The position numbers were made by a program, and so were the translations under genes. From Planctomycetaceae bacterium (lineage in GTDB: Bacteria; Planctomycetota; Planctomycetia; Planctomycetales; Planctomycetaceae), in assembly GCA_021732995.1 (NCBI GenBank), contig JAKFWA010000004.1:67810-131809 (forward strand): 64,000 nt of DNA, given 5' to 3'. Positions 14,866-18,821 of this stretch are shown one piece after another (position 1 is the first letter of the stretch; the number at the start of each line of letters is the position of its first letter). The notes under the pieces were generated by a model. It did not search any database. It worked only from the letters and a program-made list of their open reading frames with translations, and was not told where the DNA came from.

Positions 14866-15225
14866 TCAGGTTGTGCCTTTGACGGCTTCATCCAGATTGG
14901 GGTACAGCGTCCACAAGCGGTCGAGATGCGTCACTTCCAGCACTTCGCGGCAGTACGGAGTCAGACCAGCGATACCGAACTTGCCACCTGGCGTGCCATT
15001 GACGCGGTTCCAGATCCGGAACAGAACTTCAATGAACGACGACCCGAAAAAGACGGTGTGCGAAAGGTCGATCACAATCTTCGGGGGCGCAGCTTTAGAA
15101 GCAGTTTCGAGCAGTTGCGGACGAATGCCATCCAGTACGGTCTCGTCCAGGTTCTCGAACTCGGGACCCAGAATAATGCAGGTCACTTCACCGCGTTTTT
15201 CGACCCGAGGGCTTTTGTCAGACAT
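14866..15225 (-). CDS. STAS-domain protein (anti-sigma-factor antagonist-like)
   Basis: 119 residues if started at ATG 15225 (MSDKSPRVEKRG). The frame stays open upstream to 15342, but those 39 residues do not look like STAS sequence. The STAS pattern is visible: a beta strand EVTCIILG, then KIVIDLSHTVFFGSSFIEVL, where SpoIIAA-like proteins have a D-S-S phosphorylation motif. Here Gly replaces the Asp and the serines are kept, so regulation by phosphorylation is possible but not assured. The C-terminal half (GKFGIAGLTPYCREVLEVTH) fits the last helix and strand. It probably acts in partner switching or stress signalling. It converges with the DUF1549 gene and lies upstream of no obvious sigma or kinase gene. 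Confidence 0.78.
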   Translation of the reverse strand: MSDKSPRVEKRGEVTCIILGPEFENLDETVLDGIRPQLLETASKAAPPKIVIDLSHTVFFGSSFIEVLFRIWNRVNGTPGGKFGIAGLTPYCREVLEVTHLDRLWTLYPNLDEAVKGTT

Positions 15226-15409
15226 CAGAGAACTCGATCCCGATGGGGCTATGTAGAACAAAGCCATTGGCAAACTAGTGTCCCGCCACTCCCTGGCAGA
15301 CACGTCTGCGGCTGATCCTAACCCTGTCGGCAGTATTGTCAACGACCGGAAACGGTGAGCACTAACGCCGCCAGAACTCCAGTTCTGAGTGTCACTTCAG
15401 GCAAGTTAG

Positions 15410-16558
15410 CTACTCTTGCGGACGGGCATCCAACAACACAGGTACTTCGTGCAGGGTGCCGTTACGAATCACCGAAACCTTAACCGTATCTCCGGGCCGT
15501 TTCTGACTCAGAATCTTGAGCAAATCGCGGCGACTTTGAACTTTCTCGCCATCAATCCGCACAATCAAATCGCCCTTAAAGCCTTGCGGGTTCGAAGGAT
15601 CCCGCTCCATCACCTGCAAACCGGCTCGATCCGCAGGTCCATCGGGGGCGACGAAACGGACGGCCACGCCTTGCAGTTGTTGATTACCTCCGCCCATGTT
15701 CTCAACGACAATCACACCCAACCACGGGCGATCAATCGAACCGTCTCGAATAAGATCAGGCACGACGAGATTGACCACATCGACCGGCACGGCGAATCCA
15801 ATTCCGTGGGAGCCTCCTGACTGCGTGAAAATGGCCGTATTCACTCCAATCAGTCGGCCAGCGCTATCGAGTAGTGGACCTCCCGAATTCCCGGGATTGA
15901 CTGCTGCATCGGTCTGAATTGCCCCGTGAATTAGTGATCGCTCGGTTTTGATTGTCCGGTCCAAGCCACTGACGATACCTGTCGTCAGCGACTTATCGAA
16001 TTCGAACGGACTGCCGATTGCGAACGCTTTCTGACCCACTTGCAGATCTTTGGACGTCCCCACATCAATCGGCACAAGCTTGTCTTTGGGGGCATTGATC
16101 TTCAGGACGGCGACATCGTGATCGGTATCAAATCCAACCAGTCGAGCGTTGTAGCTGGAGCTGTCGTTCAGAGTCACCAGAGCGCTCTGAGCGTCCTGGA
16201 TCACATGCAAATTGGTGACAATGTGACCGTCAAGGTCCCAGATGATTCCACTGCCCGCGCCTGCGGGGATCTCAAAAACATCCCGCGTGTAAACGTTCTG
16301 ACGGACGGAAGTTGTCGTAATGTGAACGACGGAGGGCACGGCTTTCTTGAAGAGGTCTGTCGTCGACTTCTCATCGTCAGCCAGATTGCCGCGCGGAGTG
16401 ATTTCACGCGGCGTCGCATCAGGATCGTAGAGACGTGACAACGGCGACAGTTGCTTCCATGCCAGCACAGCTACGAGGCCCAGCAGCACGGCCAACAGCG
16501 TCACGTTGACTCGTGCCGAGCTACCGCTGCCTCGTGAAGGTTCGCACGCGGTGCCCAT
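15410..16558 (-). CDS. HtrA/DegP-like trypsin-family serine protease with one PDZ domain
   Basis: 382 residues from ATG 16558, chosen because GGAGAA lies 5 nt before it and the longer frame would run into the upstream gene. A membrane anchor (about residues 16-33) precedes the S1C protease domain. The triad is His118 (VTNLHVIQ), Asp148 (DHDVAVL) and Ser225 (PGNSGGPLL). One PDZ domain follows (WLGVIVVENMGG to GDTVKVSVIRNG). The protein is therefore a membrane-tethered periplasmic quality-control protease of the HhoA/DegS size class. It lies 13 bp downstream of the unrecognised gene at 16572-17378 and is very probably translated from the same message. Confidence 0.92.
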   Translation of the reverse strand: MGTACEPSRGSGSSARVNVTLLAVLLGLVAVLAWKQLSPLSRLYDPDATPREITPRGNLADDEKSTTDLFKKAVPSVVHITTTSVRQNVYTRDVFEIPAGAGSGIIWDLDGHIVTNLHVIQDAQSALVTLNDSSSYNARLVGFDTDHDVAVLKINAPKDKLVPIDVGTSKDLQVGQKAFAIGSPFEFDKSLTTGIVSGLDRTIKTERSLIHGAIQTDAAVNPGNSGGPLLDSAGRLIGVNTAIFTQSGGSHGIGFAVPVDVVNLVVPDLIRDGSIDRPWLGVIVVENMGGGNQQLQGVAVRFVAPDGPADRAGLQVMERDPSNPQGFKGDLIVRIDGEKVQSRRDLLKILSQKRPGDTVKVSVIRNGTLHEVPVLLDARPQE

Positions 16559-16571
16559 AGTTCTCCCTGCG

Positions 16572-17378
16572 TCAACCAAGTTCAGCAATTCGCTCGTTGA
16601 GGTTTTCGATTGCGGTTTGAAACCGTTCACGAGCCTTTTCTGAAACTTCACCAAAGTTCGCAACGAACTCATTCGTCAATAAACGATTGCAACGCTCGAT
16701 GGCAACAGTCATTCGCTTCACGGTGTCTTCGACACTCAGTTTCACGGGACCGTAATCGTCGCCTTGATCCTTGGGGGGAGCTGTGCCAGCTCCCTTACGG
16801 AACGGAGCGTAACCAGAGGCTGCATCATCAGAGTCTGCTGCACCTGTTACGACATCCACCCGATTTGCGCTGGTCTGGCTTTCCAGAAATGTGTCCGAGG
16901 TTGAGCGTTCGCCGTCAGACTCCCCGAAATTCTCCGGCGTGCGATAGACAATGGCATCCCCGTAACCAGGCCCCCCGGCGTCCAGTTCCACTTCGGCGTC
17001 GACCGTCAGGTCCTCACCGTGCTGCAAACGGCGCCAAGCTTTCATCTCGGCGACCGTAGCCTGATTTTCTTCAGCCCAGGCGAGACATTCTGCCGAGTCC
17101 TGCCAAGTCAGCGCCACGTAGAAGTGGGACCACTTCAGATGCTGGTACTGGTCCTTGACGTCCGCAAACGTCTCCCAGACGCGACGGCGCTGGTAAACCT
17201 GATCTCCGCTCAGCCCGATCGAACTGCCGAAGTCAGCGTCGGTGCGGCCTTTAGCGAAGCGTTGCGTCCACTGGGCGGCGCATTCGCCGACAGTCCAGTT
17301 GCAGCTGCTGATCGCCAGCTGCGCGACTTGAATGAGTTGCTGTTCCGTAGCGGGAGCAGAGACAGTTGCGGTGCTCAT
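16572..17378 (-). CDS. Conserved-looking hypothetical protein in front of htrA
   Basis: 268 residues from ATG 17378, which has an excellent Shine-Dalgarno (CAGGAGGT, 4 nt spacer). The open frame extends upstream but crosses a structured leader, so the shorter start is preferred. I do not recognise the family. The N-terminal 120 residues are probably helical (NWTVGECAAQWTQRFAKG, GLSGDQVYQRRRVWETF, WSHFYVALTWQDSAECLAWA). An acidic, low-complexity linker follows, then a C-terminal helix ending NLNERIAELG. Cysteines and tryptophans are spread through the first half. No signal peptide is seen. The 13-bp gap to htrA suggests a shared function, perhaps envelope stress or substrate sensing, but that is inference only. 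Confidence 0.75.
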   Translation of the reverse strand: MSTATVSAPATEQQLIQVAQLAISSCNWTVGECAAQWTQRFAKGRTDADFGSSIGLSGDQVYQRRRVWETFADVKDQYQHLKWSHFYVALTWQDSAECLAWAEENQATVAEMKAWRRLQHGEDLTVDAEVELDAGGPGYGDAIVYRTPENFGESDGERSTSDTFLESQTSANRVDVVTGAADSDDAASGYAPFRKGAGTAPPKDQGDDYGPVKLSVEDTVKRMTVAIERCNRLLTNEFVANFGEVSEKARERFQTAIENLNERIAELG

Positions 17379-17395
17379 CGGGACCTCCTGAGAGA

Positions 17396-17610
17396 GCAAA
17401 ACCCGGCTTCCTCGTCGAAGCCGGGTTTGCATTATCAACAGAAAGAGGCCTCCGTACCCTCGCCTGACCACCAGGGTCGTCTGCGAGCACGGGTCATCGA
17501 GGACCCGGACCTCCGTGAGAAGCGCTGAGCCATATCCGTGCCCAGCGAGCGGGCGGCAAGATAGAGACCGCCCTTCGCATTTTCCAGCAGGCAGAGCACA
17601 TCCTTTTTTG
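17396..17610 (-). ncRNA. Candidate structured RNA or regulatory leader ending in a terminator-like hairpin
   Basis: On the minus strand, upstream of the gene starting at 17378, several stems nest. CTC-t-GCCTG (17596-17588) pairs with CAGGCGAG (17466-17459), closing a multibranch region. Inside are GGGCGG/CCGCCC (17551-17556 with 17568-17573, extended by GCGA/TCGC), GCTGGGC/GCTCAGC (17524-17530 with 17540-17546) and CGGGTC/GACCCG (17490-17495 with 17502-17507). GACC/GGTC sits at 17466-17478. In the second stem one pair is G-U only in minus-strand RNA, which favours that strand. The structure leads into a 12-bp hairpin plus TTTT. TTGACA occurs at about 17635-17630 as a possible -35 element, with no clear -10. 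I could not match a known class such as 6S, SRP, RNase P or the common riboswitches. Confidence 0.5.
17399..17428 (-). terminator. Intrinsic terminator / attenuator hairpin in the leader
   Basis: GAAGCCGGGTTT and AAACCCGGCTTC form a perfect 12-bp stem with a 6-nt loop, and TTTT closes it on the minus strand. It sits about 10 nt ahead of the AGGAGGT ribosome site of the gene starting at 17378. It could end a separate small RNA, or act as the expression platform that switches the hypothetical-htrA pair. Confidence 0.7.
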
Positions 17611-17897
17611 AGTTTCTCAAGACCGGTGTTTGTCAACGCAAAATGCACTCCACGCAGACTGTGCCGCTCACATCAGCGCCGCGCGATGACCGTCATCTAT
17701 TAGATGATGTCTCTCTGAGAGGACCAGTACCGAGGTGTCGCGTCCCAGCGATTCAACTTGATGACATCGAGCGAGAACGAACCTCGGTAGCGGCTTCGAT
17801 CAACGTGACACTCACAGTCGCGGTGATCGGCCGATGCGATACGATTCGAACGCTGCGTCGGAGATCATCGGCTGCTGTTCCGCTCTGAGGAGTCGTG

Positions 17898-18821
17898 ATG
17901 AAACGCTTCAGGTTAGTACTCGCGTGCTTGTTCCTCTCCACATCAGTTCAAGTCAGCCGCGCTGCTGAGCCTCTGATTCGAGTGCTCGTCTGGGATGAAC
18001 AGCAACCCGCACAAAAGCAGGCCTACGACAACTTCCTTGGCAATGCGATCGCAGATCACCTGAGCAAGCAACCCGGCCTGCGCGTGATCTCAGCCAACAT
18101 CAATCAACCGGACAAAGGTCTGCCTGCAAGTAGCCTCGACACCACCGATGTCCTCATCTGGTGGGGCCACGCTCGCCACAACGAGATCTCAGCCGATCTC
18201 TCTAAAGACATCGTGGCACGGGTCAAACGCGGGCAATTGGCATTCATCGCCTTGCACTCCGCTCACTGGTCGAATCCATTCATGGAAGCGATGAATGAAC
18301 GCACTCGTGAGGATGCCCGACGACGGTATCCCGATCCCAAGAACGGCCCGCCGGTCAAGTTCGAGTTCATCGCTCCCGATGGCCGCTTCGTTCCAACATT
18401 CGATTCACTGAAGACGCCGGCCTACTACGCCATGCGTCGCGGTGCTCAACTGACCGTACGAGTGGATCTGCCCAACTGCGTCTTCCCCTCTTATCGAGCC
18501 GATGGCAAGCCGAGCACCGTCAAAGTTCTGAAGCCCGATCATCCGATCGCCAAAGGTTTGCCCGAATCCTTCGAGATTCCCCAAACCGAAATGTATGCCG
18601 ACCCGTTCCATGTTCCTGACGCTGACGAAGTCCTCTTCGAGGAACGCTGGGCGGCGGGTGAGAGCTTTCGCAGCGGACTCATCTGGAAGCTCGGCGAAGG
18701 CCGAGTCTTCTACTTCCGCCCCGGCCATGAAACCTATCCCGTCTTCAAGCAAGGGCTGCCCCTGAAGATCATCGCCAACGCCACGAGCTGGCTCGGCTCA
18801 CGCCTCAACAAGCAGCAGTAG
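17898..18821 (+). CDS. ThuA-like exported protein (trehalose-utilisation family)
   Basis: 307 residues from ATG 17898; a GTG three bases earlier is possible, but GAGGAG at 17887-17892 is spaced better for the ATG. A signal peptide (KRFRLVLACLFLS to SRAAEP) marks export. The ThuA fold is indicated by RVLVWDEQQP near the start, TTDVLIWWGHARHNE, VKRGQLAFIALHSAHWS and the C-terminal GEGRVFYFRPGHETYP. ThuA-like proteins belong to the class-I glutamine-amidotransferase-like fold and act in carbohydrate metabolism, with no firm reaction assigned to most members. The downstream GyrB-like gene begins 24 bp later, so the two may be co-transcribed. Confidence 0.85.
   Translation: MKRFRLVLACLFLSTSVQVSRAAEPLIRVLVWDEQQPAQKQAYDNFLGNAIADHLSKQPGLRVISANINQPDKGLPASSLDTTDVLIWWGHARHNEISADLSKDIVARVKRGQLAFIALHSAHWSNPFMEAMNERTREDARRRYPDPKNGPPVKFEFIAPDGRFVPTFDSLKTPAYYAMRRGAQLTVRVDLPNCVFPSYRADGKPSTVKVLKPDHPIAKGLPESFEIPQTEMYADPFHVPDADEVLFEERWAAGESFRSGLIWKLGEGRVFYFRPGHETYPVFKQGLPLKIIANATSWLGSRLNKQQ

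What the first reader, a model, noticed from the sequence alone, without database searches (positions are those of the whole stretch)
17396..17638. Candidate structured RNA / riboswitch-like leader before the hypothetical-htrA pair
About 215 nt upstream of a strong Shine-Dalgarno contain at least five non-trivial stems, one of which pairs as G-U only on the minus strand. The last is a 12-bp GC hairpin with a T-run placed just ahead of the ribosome site, as in attenuators. TTGACA is at the expected distance upstream. No known RNA class was recognised. The downstream genes (unknown protein, HtrA) suggest control of envelope stress.
Basis: partly seen in the sequence, partly recalled or inferred. 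Interest (0 to 1): 0.62.

Follow-up and report, generated by a model that had tools for sequence, protein, structure and literature searches.

The report
Conserved GGA-loop leader RNA, planctomycetes
The stretch is a real, evolutionarily conserved RNA leader in front of a protease-type operon of planctomycete bacteria, and its conserved positions match the sequence that the global RNA-binding regulator CsrA recognises, so it is probably a CsrA-controlled leader rather than a riboswitch.

Summary
The stretch holds a real structured RNA on the minus strand, but no known riboswitch: Rfam has no match at its cut-offs (permissive scan). Homologues stand upstream of the same gene in 10 genomes of 4 genera (clade A). 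A simpler leader with the same motifs precedes it in genus g72 (clade B, 12 of 12 genomes), though neither clade's model finds the other's leader. On the clade-A alignment 97.7% of 215 cells pair and 10 of 25 pairs change on both sides; slid controls give 0-2. What is conserved is A-N-GGA-X, in hairpin loops and a bulge: at two sites per clade A and GGA are invariant while N varies, and X in three of four. That is the published CsrA/RsmE site (PMC4005645 passages). CsrA is encoded in 170 of 170 family genomes, 3-17 matches each. The gene product has a ParB/KorB-like fold; htrA lies nearby in 33 of 64 loci. Best reading: a CsrA-bound 5' leader; binding and direction are untested. The 12-bp hairpin is real but separate, with a counterpart at that place in 1 of the 9 other clade-A leaders.

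The parts
17581..17586 (-). candidate -35 hexamer TGGAAA
   Evidence: 17 nt from the -10. Same place: TGGAAA, TTGAGA, TAGAAA or TGGAAT in the other 9 clade-A leaders, TGGCAT or TGGCGT in 12 clade-B leaders; -10s chosen by eye or by a pattern made from them, spacing of 17 imposed
17558..17563 (-). candidate -10 hexamer TATCTT (transcript start about 17551, inferred)
17523..17547 (-). hairpin H1, 8 bp, loop ACGGATATG (site 1, GGA at 17535-17537)
   Evidence: stem covaries in clade A, 4 of 8 pairs with double changes, 92.2% of cells paired; GGA mean unpaired probability 0.77
17509..17518 (-). site 2, UCACGGAGGU (GGA at 17512-17514)
   Evidence: C, A, GGA and the following G and U invariant in 10 of 10 clade-A rows; N is C or U, X is G or U. 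Predicted paired in this sequence (unpaired 0.03)
17488..17517 (-). helix P2: CAC/GUG and GGG/CCC around the bulge GGAGGUCC
   Evidence: 6 modelled pairs, 100% of cells paired in 10 homologues, changes on one side only
17459..17487 (-). hairpin P3
   Evidence: 8 modelled pairs in two helices, 5 with double changes, 100% of cells paired
17447..17458 (-). hairpin P4, GGU[ACGGAG]GCC: A-N-GGA-X hexaloop (site 3, GGA at 17451-17453), followed by a U-rich tract
   Evidence: A and GGA in 10 of 10 rows, one row with an extra C before them; closing pair covaries, 9 of 10 paired
17399..17428 (-). 12-bp hairpin, terminator-like
   Evidence: stretch 17379-17440 folds with z -3.83; a hairpin of different sequence at the same place in genome G001, z -4.47; none comparable in the last 75 nt of the other 8 clade-A leaders
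17383..17389 (-). Shine-Dalgarno AGGAGGT
16572..17378 (-). first gene of the operon, 268 aa, predicted ParB/KorB-like DNA-binding fold at the N-terminus
   Evidence: no Pfam family; Foldseek best hits ParB DNA-binding domains, E 0.019, prob 1.00
15410..16672 (-). htrA-type protease with PDZ domain (ORF overlaps the first gene by 101 nt; true start probably inside)
   Evidence: gene order
14866..15342 (-). STAS-domain protein
   Evidence: gene order

Best explanation
The stretch encodes a structured 5' leader of the ParB-like/htrA (and STAS) operon, transcribed on the minus strand from about 17551. Shown by comparison: the leader's stems are conserved by compensatory change in clade A, and it presents A-N-GGA-X motifs, in hairpin loops and a bulge, upstream of the same gene in two sister clades. 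Inferred: CsrA (RsmA/RsmE family) dimers bind these sites, bridging H1 to site 2 and site 2 to the P4 loop, and so set how much of the operon is made. In clade B the leader runs to the start codon, so translation or mRNA stability is the likely target; in clade A the P4 hairpin with its U-rich tail, and in this genus the extra 12-bp hairpin, suggest that read-through may be controlled as well. The direction (repression or activation) is not known; repression in the manner of glgC and pgaA is my guess.
For: Structure: 97.7% of 215 cells paired, 10 of 25 pairs with double changes (shuffles mean 5.7, 0 of 500 reach 10), against 0 to 2 when partners are slid by 1-3 columns. Recognition signature: site 2 and P4 of clade A (10 rows), H1 and site 2 of clade B (12 rows) all keep A and GGA invariant while N varies; X varies in 3 of the 4. 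PMC4005645 (passages) gives the high-affinity CsrA/RsmE site as an ANGGAX hexaloop directly on a stem; P4 has that form in 9 of 10 rows, clade-B H1 has it with one extra base in the loop. AYGGA in the conserved RNA exceeds shuffles with p below 0.02 in 9 of 10 clade-A rows (L001: 3 seen, 0.20 expected, p 0.002). In the 130 nt before the ATG clade B has 21 against 3.0 expected; 141 other genes have 49 against 38.3. CsrA in 170 of 170 family genomes; at least 3 of the 14 candidates of this genome keep the VHR end whose arginine is called R44 in E. coli. GGA gaps of 20 and 58 nt in the window fall in the 10-63 nt bridging range (PMC7652899 passages). Position: genome-wide model searches found true matches only upstream of this gene: 6 with R1, 7 with R2, 12 of 12 with R3. 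The clades are sisters in the protein tree, with modest support (84/62), so one gain is possible.
Against: No binding or expression data exist. The predicted folds pair site 2 in much of clade A (GGA unpaired 0.03 and 0.05 in L001 and L005, 0.22-0.72 in the other eight), and P4 is 0.38-0.95 open. L006 (genus g7) has only one ANGGA, no GGA in H1 and CCGGA in P4; its AYGGA count is not significant (p 0.084). In clade B 7 of 12 leaders have p from 0.055 to 0.383, the stems show no covariation, and 9 of 12 have GGA gaps of 65-66 nt, just over the bridging range. R1 does not match clade B and R3 does not match clade A, so common descent of the two leaders rests on motifs, position and the tree. Four of the ten clade-A members (L072, L073, L075, L077) were found through the gene, so their position is not independent. 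CsrA is in every genome of the family, so its presence does not discriminate. Conservation of GGUCC beyond the CsrA consensus is not explained. The alignment was fitted to a model of most of the same structure.
Confidence: 0.55

Rival explanations
1. The RNA is a separate small RNA, ended at P4 or at the 12-bp hairpin, that titrates CsrA in trans (RsmX/Y/Z- or CsrB-like sponge), and lies before the operon by history only.
For: In 8 of 10 clade-A genomes 100-228 nt lie between the end of the conserved RNA and the ATG; P4 is followed by a U-rich tract, clearest in L006; from predicted start to P4 end it is 107-156 nt in g1, g7 and g66 (225-283 in g31); several GGA loops.
Against: 1 to 6 ANGGA per RNA by motif count, where RsmZ has eight GGA motifs (PMC4005645); true matches only before the same gene; in clade B the leader runs into the start codon; 8 of 10 clade-A leaders keep a conserved sequence at the ribosome site downstream of the RNA.
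Confidence: 0.2
2. A riboswitch or a leader bound by some other protein, in which GGAGGUCC and the P4 strand form a pocket or a pseudoknot (in L001 and L005 GGAGGUC can pair with GGCCUCU).
For: Conservation of GGUCC beyond the CsrA consensus; the MFE of L001 and L005 closes a three-way junction by that pairing.
Against: The pairing is not kept by compensatory change: L072 has GGAUG against an unchanged CCUUC; variation follows N and X of ANGGAX; no Rfam class.
Confidence: 0.15
3. An RNA thermometer or plain transcription attenuator for the htrA operon, sequence elements incidental.
For: htrA nearby; weak 4-bp pairing over the SD in the window; CAGCAnnGAGGCUG, able to form a 4-bp hairpin, at the ribosome site in 8 of 10 clade-A leaders; a terminator-like hairpin in both genomes of this genus.
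Against: Does not explain the invariant A and GGA, nor the stems H1 to P4; the ribosome-site hairpin is in the MFE of only 2 of those 8 (L006, L073).
Confidence: 0.07
4. No functional RNA; chance hairpins in a G+C-rich spacer.
For: Core folding energy equals shuffles (z -0.06); hairpins with other loop motifs are about as frequent in the window as those with ANGGA.
Against: Conservation across 4 genera with double changes.
Confidence: 0.03

Closest known systems
E. coli pgaA and glgC leaders (CsrA-bound 5' UTRs)
   Same: Two or more GGA sites in a leader, in glgC one in a hairpin loop, bridged by one dimer (PMC7652899 passages)
   Different: Here the conserved sites are not at the SD; different phylum and operon; no known sequence relation; binding untested
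RsmZ/RsmX sponge RNAs of Pseudomonas
   Same: A(N)GGAX in loops of consecutive stem-loops; RsmZ is 127 nt with a terminator at its end (PMC4005645 passages)
   Different: Fewer sites here, placed before one operon, part of its leader in clade B; no Rfam match
TwoAYGGAY and Rhodopirellula-1 candidate RNAs (Weinberg 2010)
   Same: By name, AYGGAY elements; Rhodopirellula-1 is listed for Proteobacteria and Planctomycetes (PMC2864571, table passages)
   Different: No consensus of either was seen and neither has an Rfam number in that table, so identity could not be tested; TwoAYGGAY is listed there for human gut, gamma-Proteobacteria and Clostridiales

Membership tests
CsrA-bound leader RNA | conserved A(N)GGA motifs | tested here: met
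   invariant A and GGA at 4 aligned sites, two per clade; L006 is an exception in H1 and has an extra C in P4
CsrA-bound leader RNA | motif in a hairpin loop or single strand | tested here: inconclusive
   mean unpaired probability of GGA: H1 0.77 in L001 and L005; P4 0.53 and 0.95 there, 0.38-0.64 in the other eight clade-A rows; site 2 0.03 and 0.05 there, 0.22-0.72 in the other eight; clade-B site 2 0.58-1.00 in 11 of 12 and 0.42 in L116
CsrA-bound leader RNA | two or more sites 10-63 nt apart | tested here: inconclusive
   20 and 58 nt in the window; at least one gap in range in 9 of 10 clade-A RNAs; 33 nt in 3 and 65-66 nt in 9 of 12 clade-B leaders
CsrA-bound leader RNA | genome encodes CsrA with RNA-binding residues | tested here: met
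   170 of 170 genomes; 12 of 14 own-genome candidates aligned to a recalled E. coli sequence, one of them (L096) in a wrong frame, at least 3 with the canonical end
CsrA-bound leader RNA | binding by CsrA and effect on expression | not testable with these tools
   needs bench work
CsrB/RsmZ-type sponge RNA | match to an Rfam sponge family | tested here: not met
   0 matches at gathering score in the window; only rnk_pseudo, E 2.9 and 3.5, in a permissive scan of 17300-17900
CsrB/RsmZ-type sponge RNA | independent transcript with its own terminator | tested here: inconclusive
   U-rich tail after P4 varies; 0 terminators by scan in the window
known riboswitch classes | Rfam match | tested here: not met
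Pseudomonas rnk leader (RF01772) | score over the gathering cut-off | tested here: not met
   17.1 bits against 55, E 2.9
RNA thermometer | SD masked by an imperfect helix that melts | tested here: inconclusive
   only a 4-bp helix over the SD in the window

The most novel reading that the evidence does not exclude
An undescribed family of planctomycete Csr RNAs: a leader whose terminator-like P4 hairpin carries the CsrA site in its loop, so that CsrA binding decides read-through into a ParB-like/htrA/STAS operon while the short terminated product sequesters CsrA in trans, in a family of bacteria with up to 17 CsrA-type matches per genome.
Probability: 0.15. Interest if true: 0.75.

Novelty: new variant of a known kind. 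Interest (0 to 1): 0.5.

Why it matters
Searches aimed at planctomycete CsrA with small RNA (6 of 6 listed), planctomycete CsrA (20 of 444 listed) and planctomycete structured RNAs (1 of 1 listed) showed no title on a Csr RNA in planctomycetes, although this family has 3 to 17 CsrA-type matches per genome. The leader gives a concrete, testable candidate target for CsrA control in the phylum, with mutable sites and a partly conserved operon behind it.

Tried and rejected
Riboswitch of a known class: no Rfam match. DNA-level search: besides the own genome only the same-genus genome matched among 59 genomes searched, so protein orthologues, a pattern and covariance models were used instead. Pattern search gave matches in 6 of 170 family genomes, 3 true (G000, G001, G007) and 3 taken as chance (G008, G023, G165). 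Model R1 gave 30 of 170 genomes at E up to 1; of the 30 loci fetched, 6 had the gene and are true, 24 lacked it and were dropped; two further weak matches in those genomes had no locus. Under its strict filters R1 missed G096, G097, G098 and G117, which do carry the RNA. Model R2 gave 9 of 397 class genomes at E up to 0.1; 7 true, 2 weak hits (G013, G163) without the gene nearby. A GGAGGUC:GGCCUCU pairing in L001 and L005 is not supported by compensatory change. A conserved small ORF was considered by eye and dropped because the frame is not kept between L001 and L005. MAFFT misaligned L007 in A1, so R1 was built without it. Protein family scans of the first gene gave nothing significant. Folding energy of the core is uninformative. 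A first motif test cut eight clade-A leaders at 190 nt and so lost P4 in g31, and a first control set still held the orthologue in some loci; both were redone, which I quote.

Full report
What was checked. The finding lies on the minus strand ahead of an ORF that starts at 17378. The 12-bp hairpin (17399-17428) and the AGGAGGT SD (17383-17389) are as described. The whole stretch folds with z -2.52 on the minus and -2.46 on the plus strand, but the conserved core alone has z -0.06, so energy says nothing for the core. The promoter scan of 15300-18300 found one site, elsewhere. No Rfam family reaches its cut-off in the window, and a permissive scan gave only rnk_pseudo at E 2.9 and 3.5.

Homologues. 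The ORF (268 aa) matches in 39 of 59 genomes, the own one included, a few of them weakly. DNA similarity of the leader reaches only the own and the same-genus genome. Reading upstream of the closest orthologues showed a shared element in L005, L006 and L007. Model R1, built from three sequences, found three sites outside its seed among 170 family genomes, L045, L046 and L047, at 35.8-38.3 bits, all upstream of the orthologue; L046 is the L007 site. Fetching orthologues of genera g31 and g66 gave ten homologues in four genera: L001, L005; L006; L007, L072, L075, L076, L077; L073, L074. One of the eight genomes searched there, G095 (59% complete), had no orthologue. In the named collection 9 of 64 orthologue loci matched R1 below E 0.01 (a tenth, L121, at 0.92 is taken as chance); their bit scores equal those of nine of the ten, so these are the same genomes under names, not new support.

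Structure. On the ten-row alignment the stems H1, P2, P3 and P4 pair in 97.7% of 215 cells, and 10 of 25 pairs have changes on both sides; shuffles gave a mean of 5.7, none of 500 reached 10, and sliding partners by 1-3 columns gave 0-2. The alignment was fitted to a model of most of this structure, which favours it; P4 was not in that model. P2 shows changes on one side only.

Signature. In clade A, site 2 reads U-C-A-N-GGA-X-G-U with N = C or U and X = G or U; besides these only the first U varies (one G). The P4 loop reads A-N-GGA-X with N = C or U and X = G or U, one row with an extra C, and the pair below it is A-U, C-G, U-G or, in L005, A against G. H1 has GGA in its loop in g1 and g66; in g31 a separate upstream hairpin has CAGGAG in its loop; L006 has none. 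PMC4005645 (passages) states that the high-affinity CsrA/RsmE site is an ANGGAX hexaloop directly on a stem.

Clade B. Twelve loci (L105, L106, L109, L111-L118, L158) carry, between a promoter-like pair and the ATG, a hairpin CCGCU-G[ANGGAX]-AGCGG, then GCA-N-GGAGG, and a hairpin that ends a few bases before the start codon. Variation again falls on N and, in H1, on X. Model R3 matched in 12 of 12 genomes of genus g72 and in no other of 170 family genomes at E up to 0.01, once each and always upstream of the gene; these are probably the same genomes as the twelve loci. Its stems do not covary; the sequences are alike. R1 does not match clade B, nor R3 clade A. In a protein tree of 61 rows clades A and B are each one side of a branch (100/100) and sisters with support 84/62, which is modest. 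Four loci (L139, L156, L159, L160: partial hits or paralogues) were left out of the tree.

Counts. AYGGA in the conserved RNA (start to P4 end) exceeds dinucleotide shuffles in clade A with p 0.001-0.019 in 9 of 10 rows and 0.084 in L006; in clade B p is 0.038-0.049 in 5 of 12 and 0.055-0.383 in 7. Rows are related, so these are not independent. In the 130 nt before the ATG, clade B has 21 against 3.0 expected and 39 other orthologues 26 against 12.4, 16 of 39 with at least one; 141 other genes have 49 against 38.3, 34 of 141 with at least one; 16 of 39 against 34 of 141 gives Fisher p 0.044. Hairpins with ANGGA in a loop of 6-12 and at least 7 bp occur at 0.016 per 115 nt in the window, both strands, those with two control motifs at 0.008-0.012.

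CsrA. PF02599 matches over its cut-off in 170 of 170 family genomes, 3 to 17 per genome, 14 in this one. Twelve of the 14 entered an alignment with a recalled E. coli CsrA, L096 in a wrong frame; L083, L084 and L085 keep the canonical ends.

Operon. htrA matched in 33 and STAS in 16 of 64 loci (2.5-kb flanks, some cut; in L124 htrA is on the other strand). Among the nine clade-A loci both were found in 8 (not L097); among twelve clade-B loci htrA in 12, two of them partial, and STAS in 2. The window's two upstream neighbours (ThuA-like and gyrase-like) matched in none of the 64. The first gene has no Pfam hit at E 0.001, no significant NCBIfam or PHROGs hit and no PDB sequence match below E 0.86. 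Its model (mean pLDDT 64.5, N-terminal part about 85) resembles ParB/KorB/Noc DNA-binding domains (best E 0.019, prob 1.00, 18% identity; none below 0.001).

How it likely works. Transcription starts near 17551 from TGGAAA-N17-TATCTT (inferred by eye, with counterparts in 21 other leaders). H1, site 2 and P4 present GGA 20 and 58 nt apart, within the 10-63 nt over which one CsrA dimer can bridge (PMC7652899 passages). Binding would set folding of the leader and so translation, stability or read-through of the operon. In this genus a terminator-like hairpin stands just before the SD in both genomes, with different sequence, so attenuation is possible here. In 8 of 10 clade-A leaders CAGCAnnGAGGCUG sits at the ribosome site; the MFE of the last 75 nt forms that hairpin in 2 of the 8. 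Steps shown: conserved RNA, conserved motif, CsrA present, position before the operon. Steps inferred: promoter, binding, direction.

Literature. The results (6 of 6 listed; 20 of 113; 20 of 444; 20 of 727; 8 of 20; 1 of 1; 5 of 19; 5 of 40) were read as listings. Passages were read of PMC2864571, PMC4005645, PMC7366521, PMC9029176 and PMC7652899. None of what I saw describes such an RNA. The library lacks most papers of subscription journals.

Noticed in passing
170 genomes of the window's family: CsrA-type genes are amplified: 3 to 17 PF02599 matches per genome, 14 in this genome. [quoted passage not shown]
   Followed up: partly
L091:901-1698 (minus), G000:C46: A CsrA domain and a response-regulator receiver domain in one 265-aa ORF (Pfam CsrA 3.1e-13, Response_reg 7.5e-18). 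A phosphorylation-controlled CsrA is conceivable.
   Followed up: partly
L095, G000:C44: A CsrA-like ORF with an insert of some 50 residues inside the domain.
   Followed up: no
L006, L007, L072, L073, L074, L075, L076, L077, just upstream of the ATG: Conserved CAGCAnnGAGGCUG with the SD-like GAGG, 4 nt before the start codon, in 8 of 10 clade-A leaders; a 4-bp hairpin is possible, in the MFE of L006 and L073 only.
   Followed up: partly
L002 and L003 (G000:C58, C68): Paralogues of the first operon gene in the same genome, 55% and 45% identical over part of the length; model R1 found no leader there at E up to 5.
   Followed up: no
39 orthologues outside clades A and B: Mild excess of AYGGA in the 130 nt before the start codon (26 against 12.4 expected, 16 of 39 with at least one), and UCACGGAUAU just before the start of the separate partial homologue L159; CsrA control may be wider than the structured leader.
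   Followed up: partly
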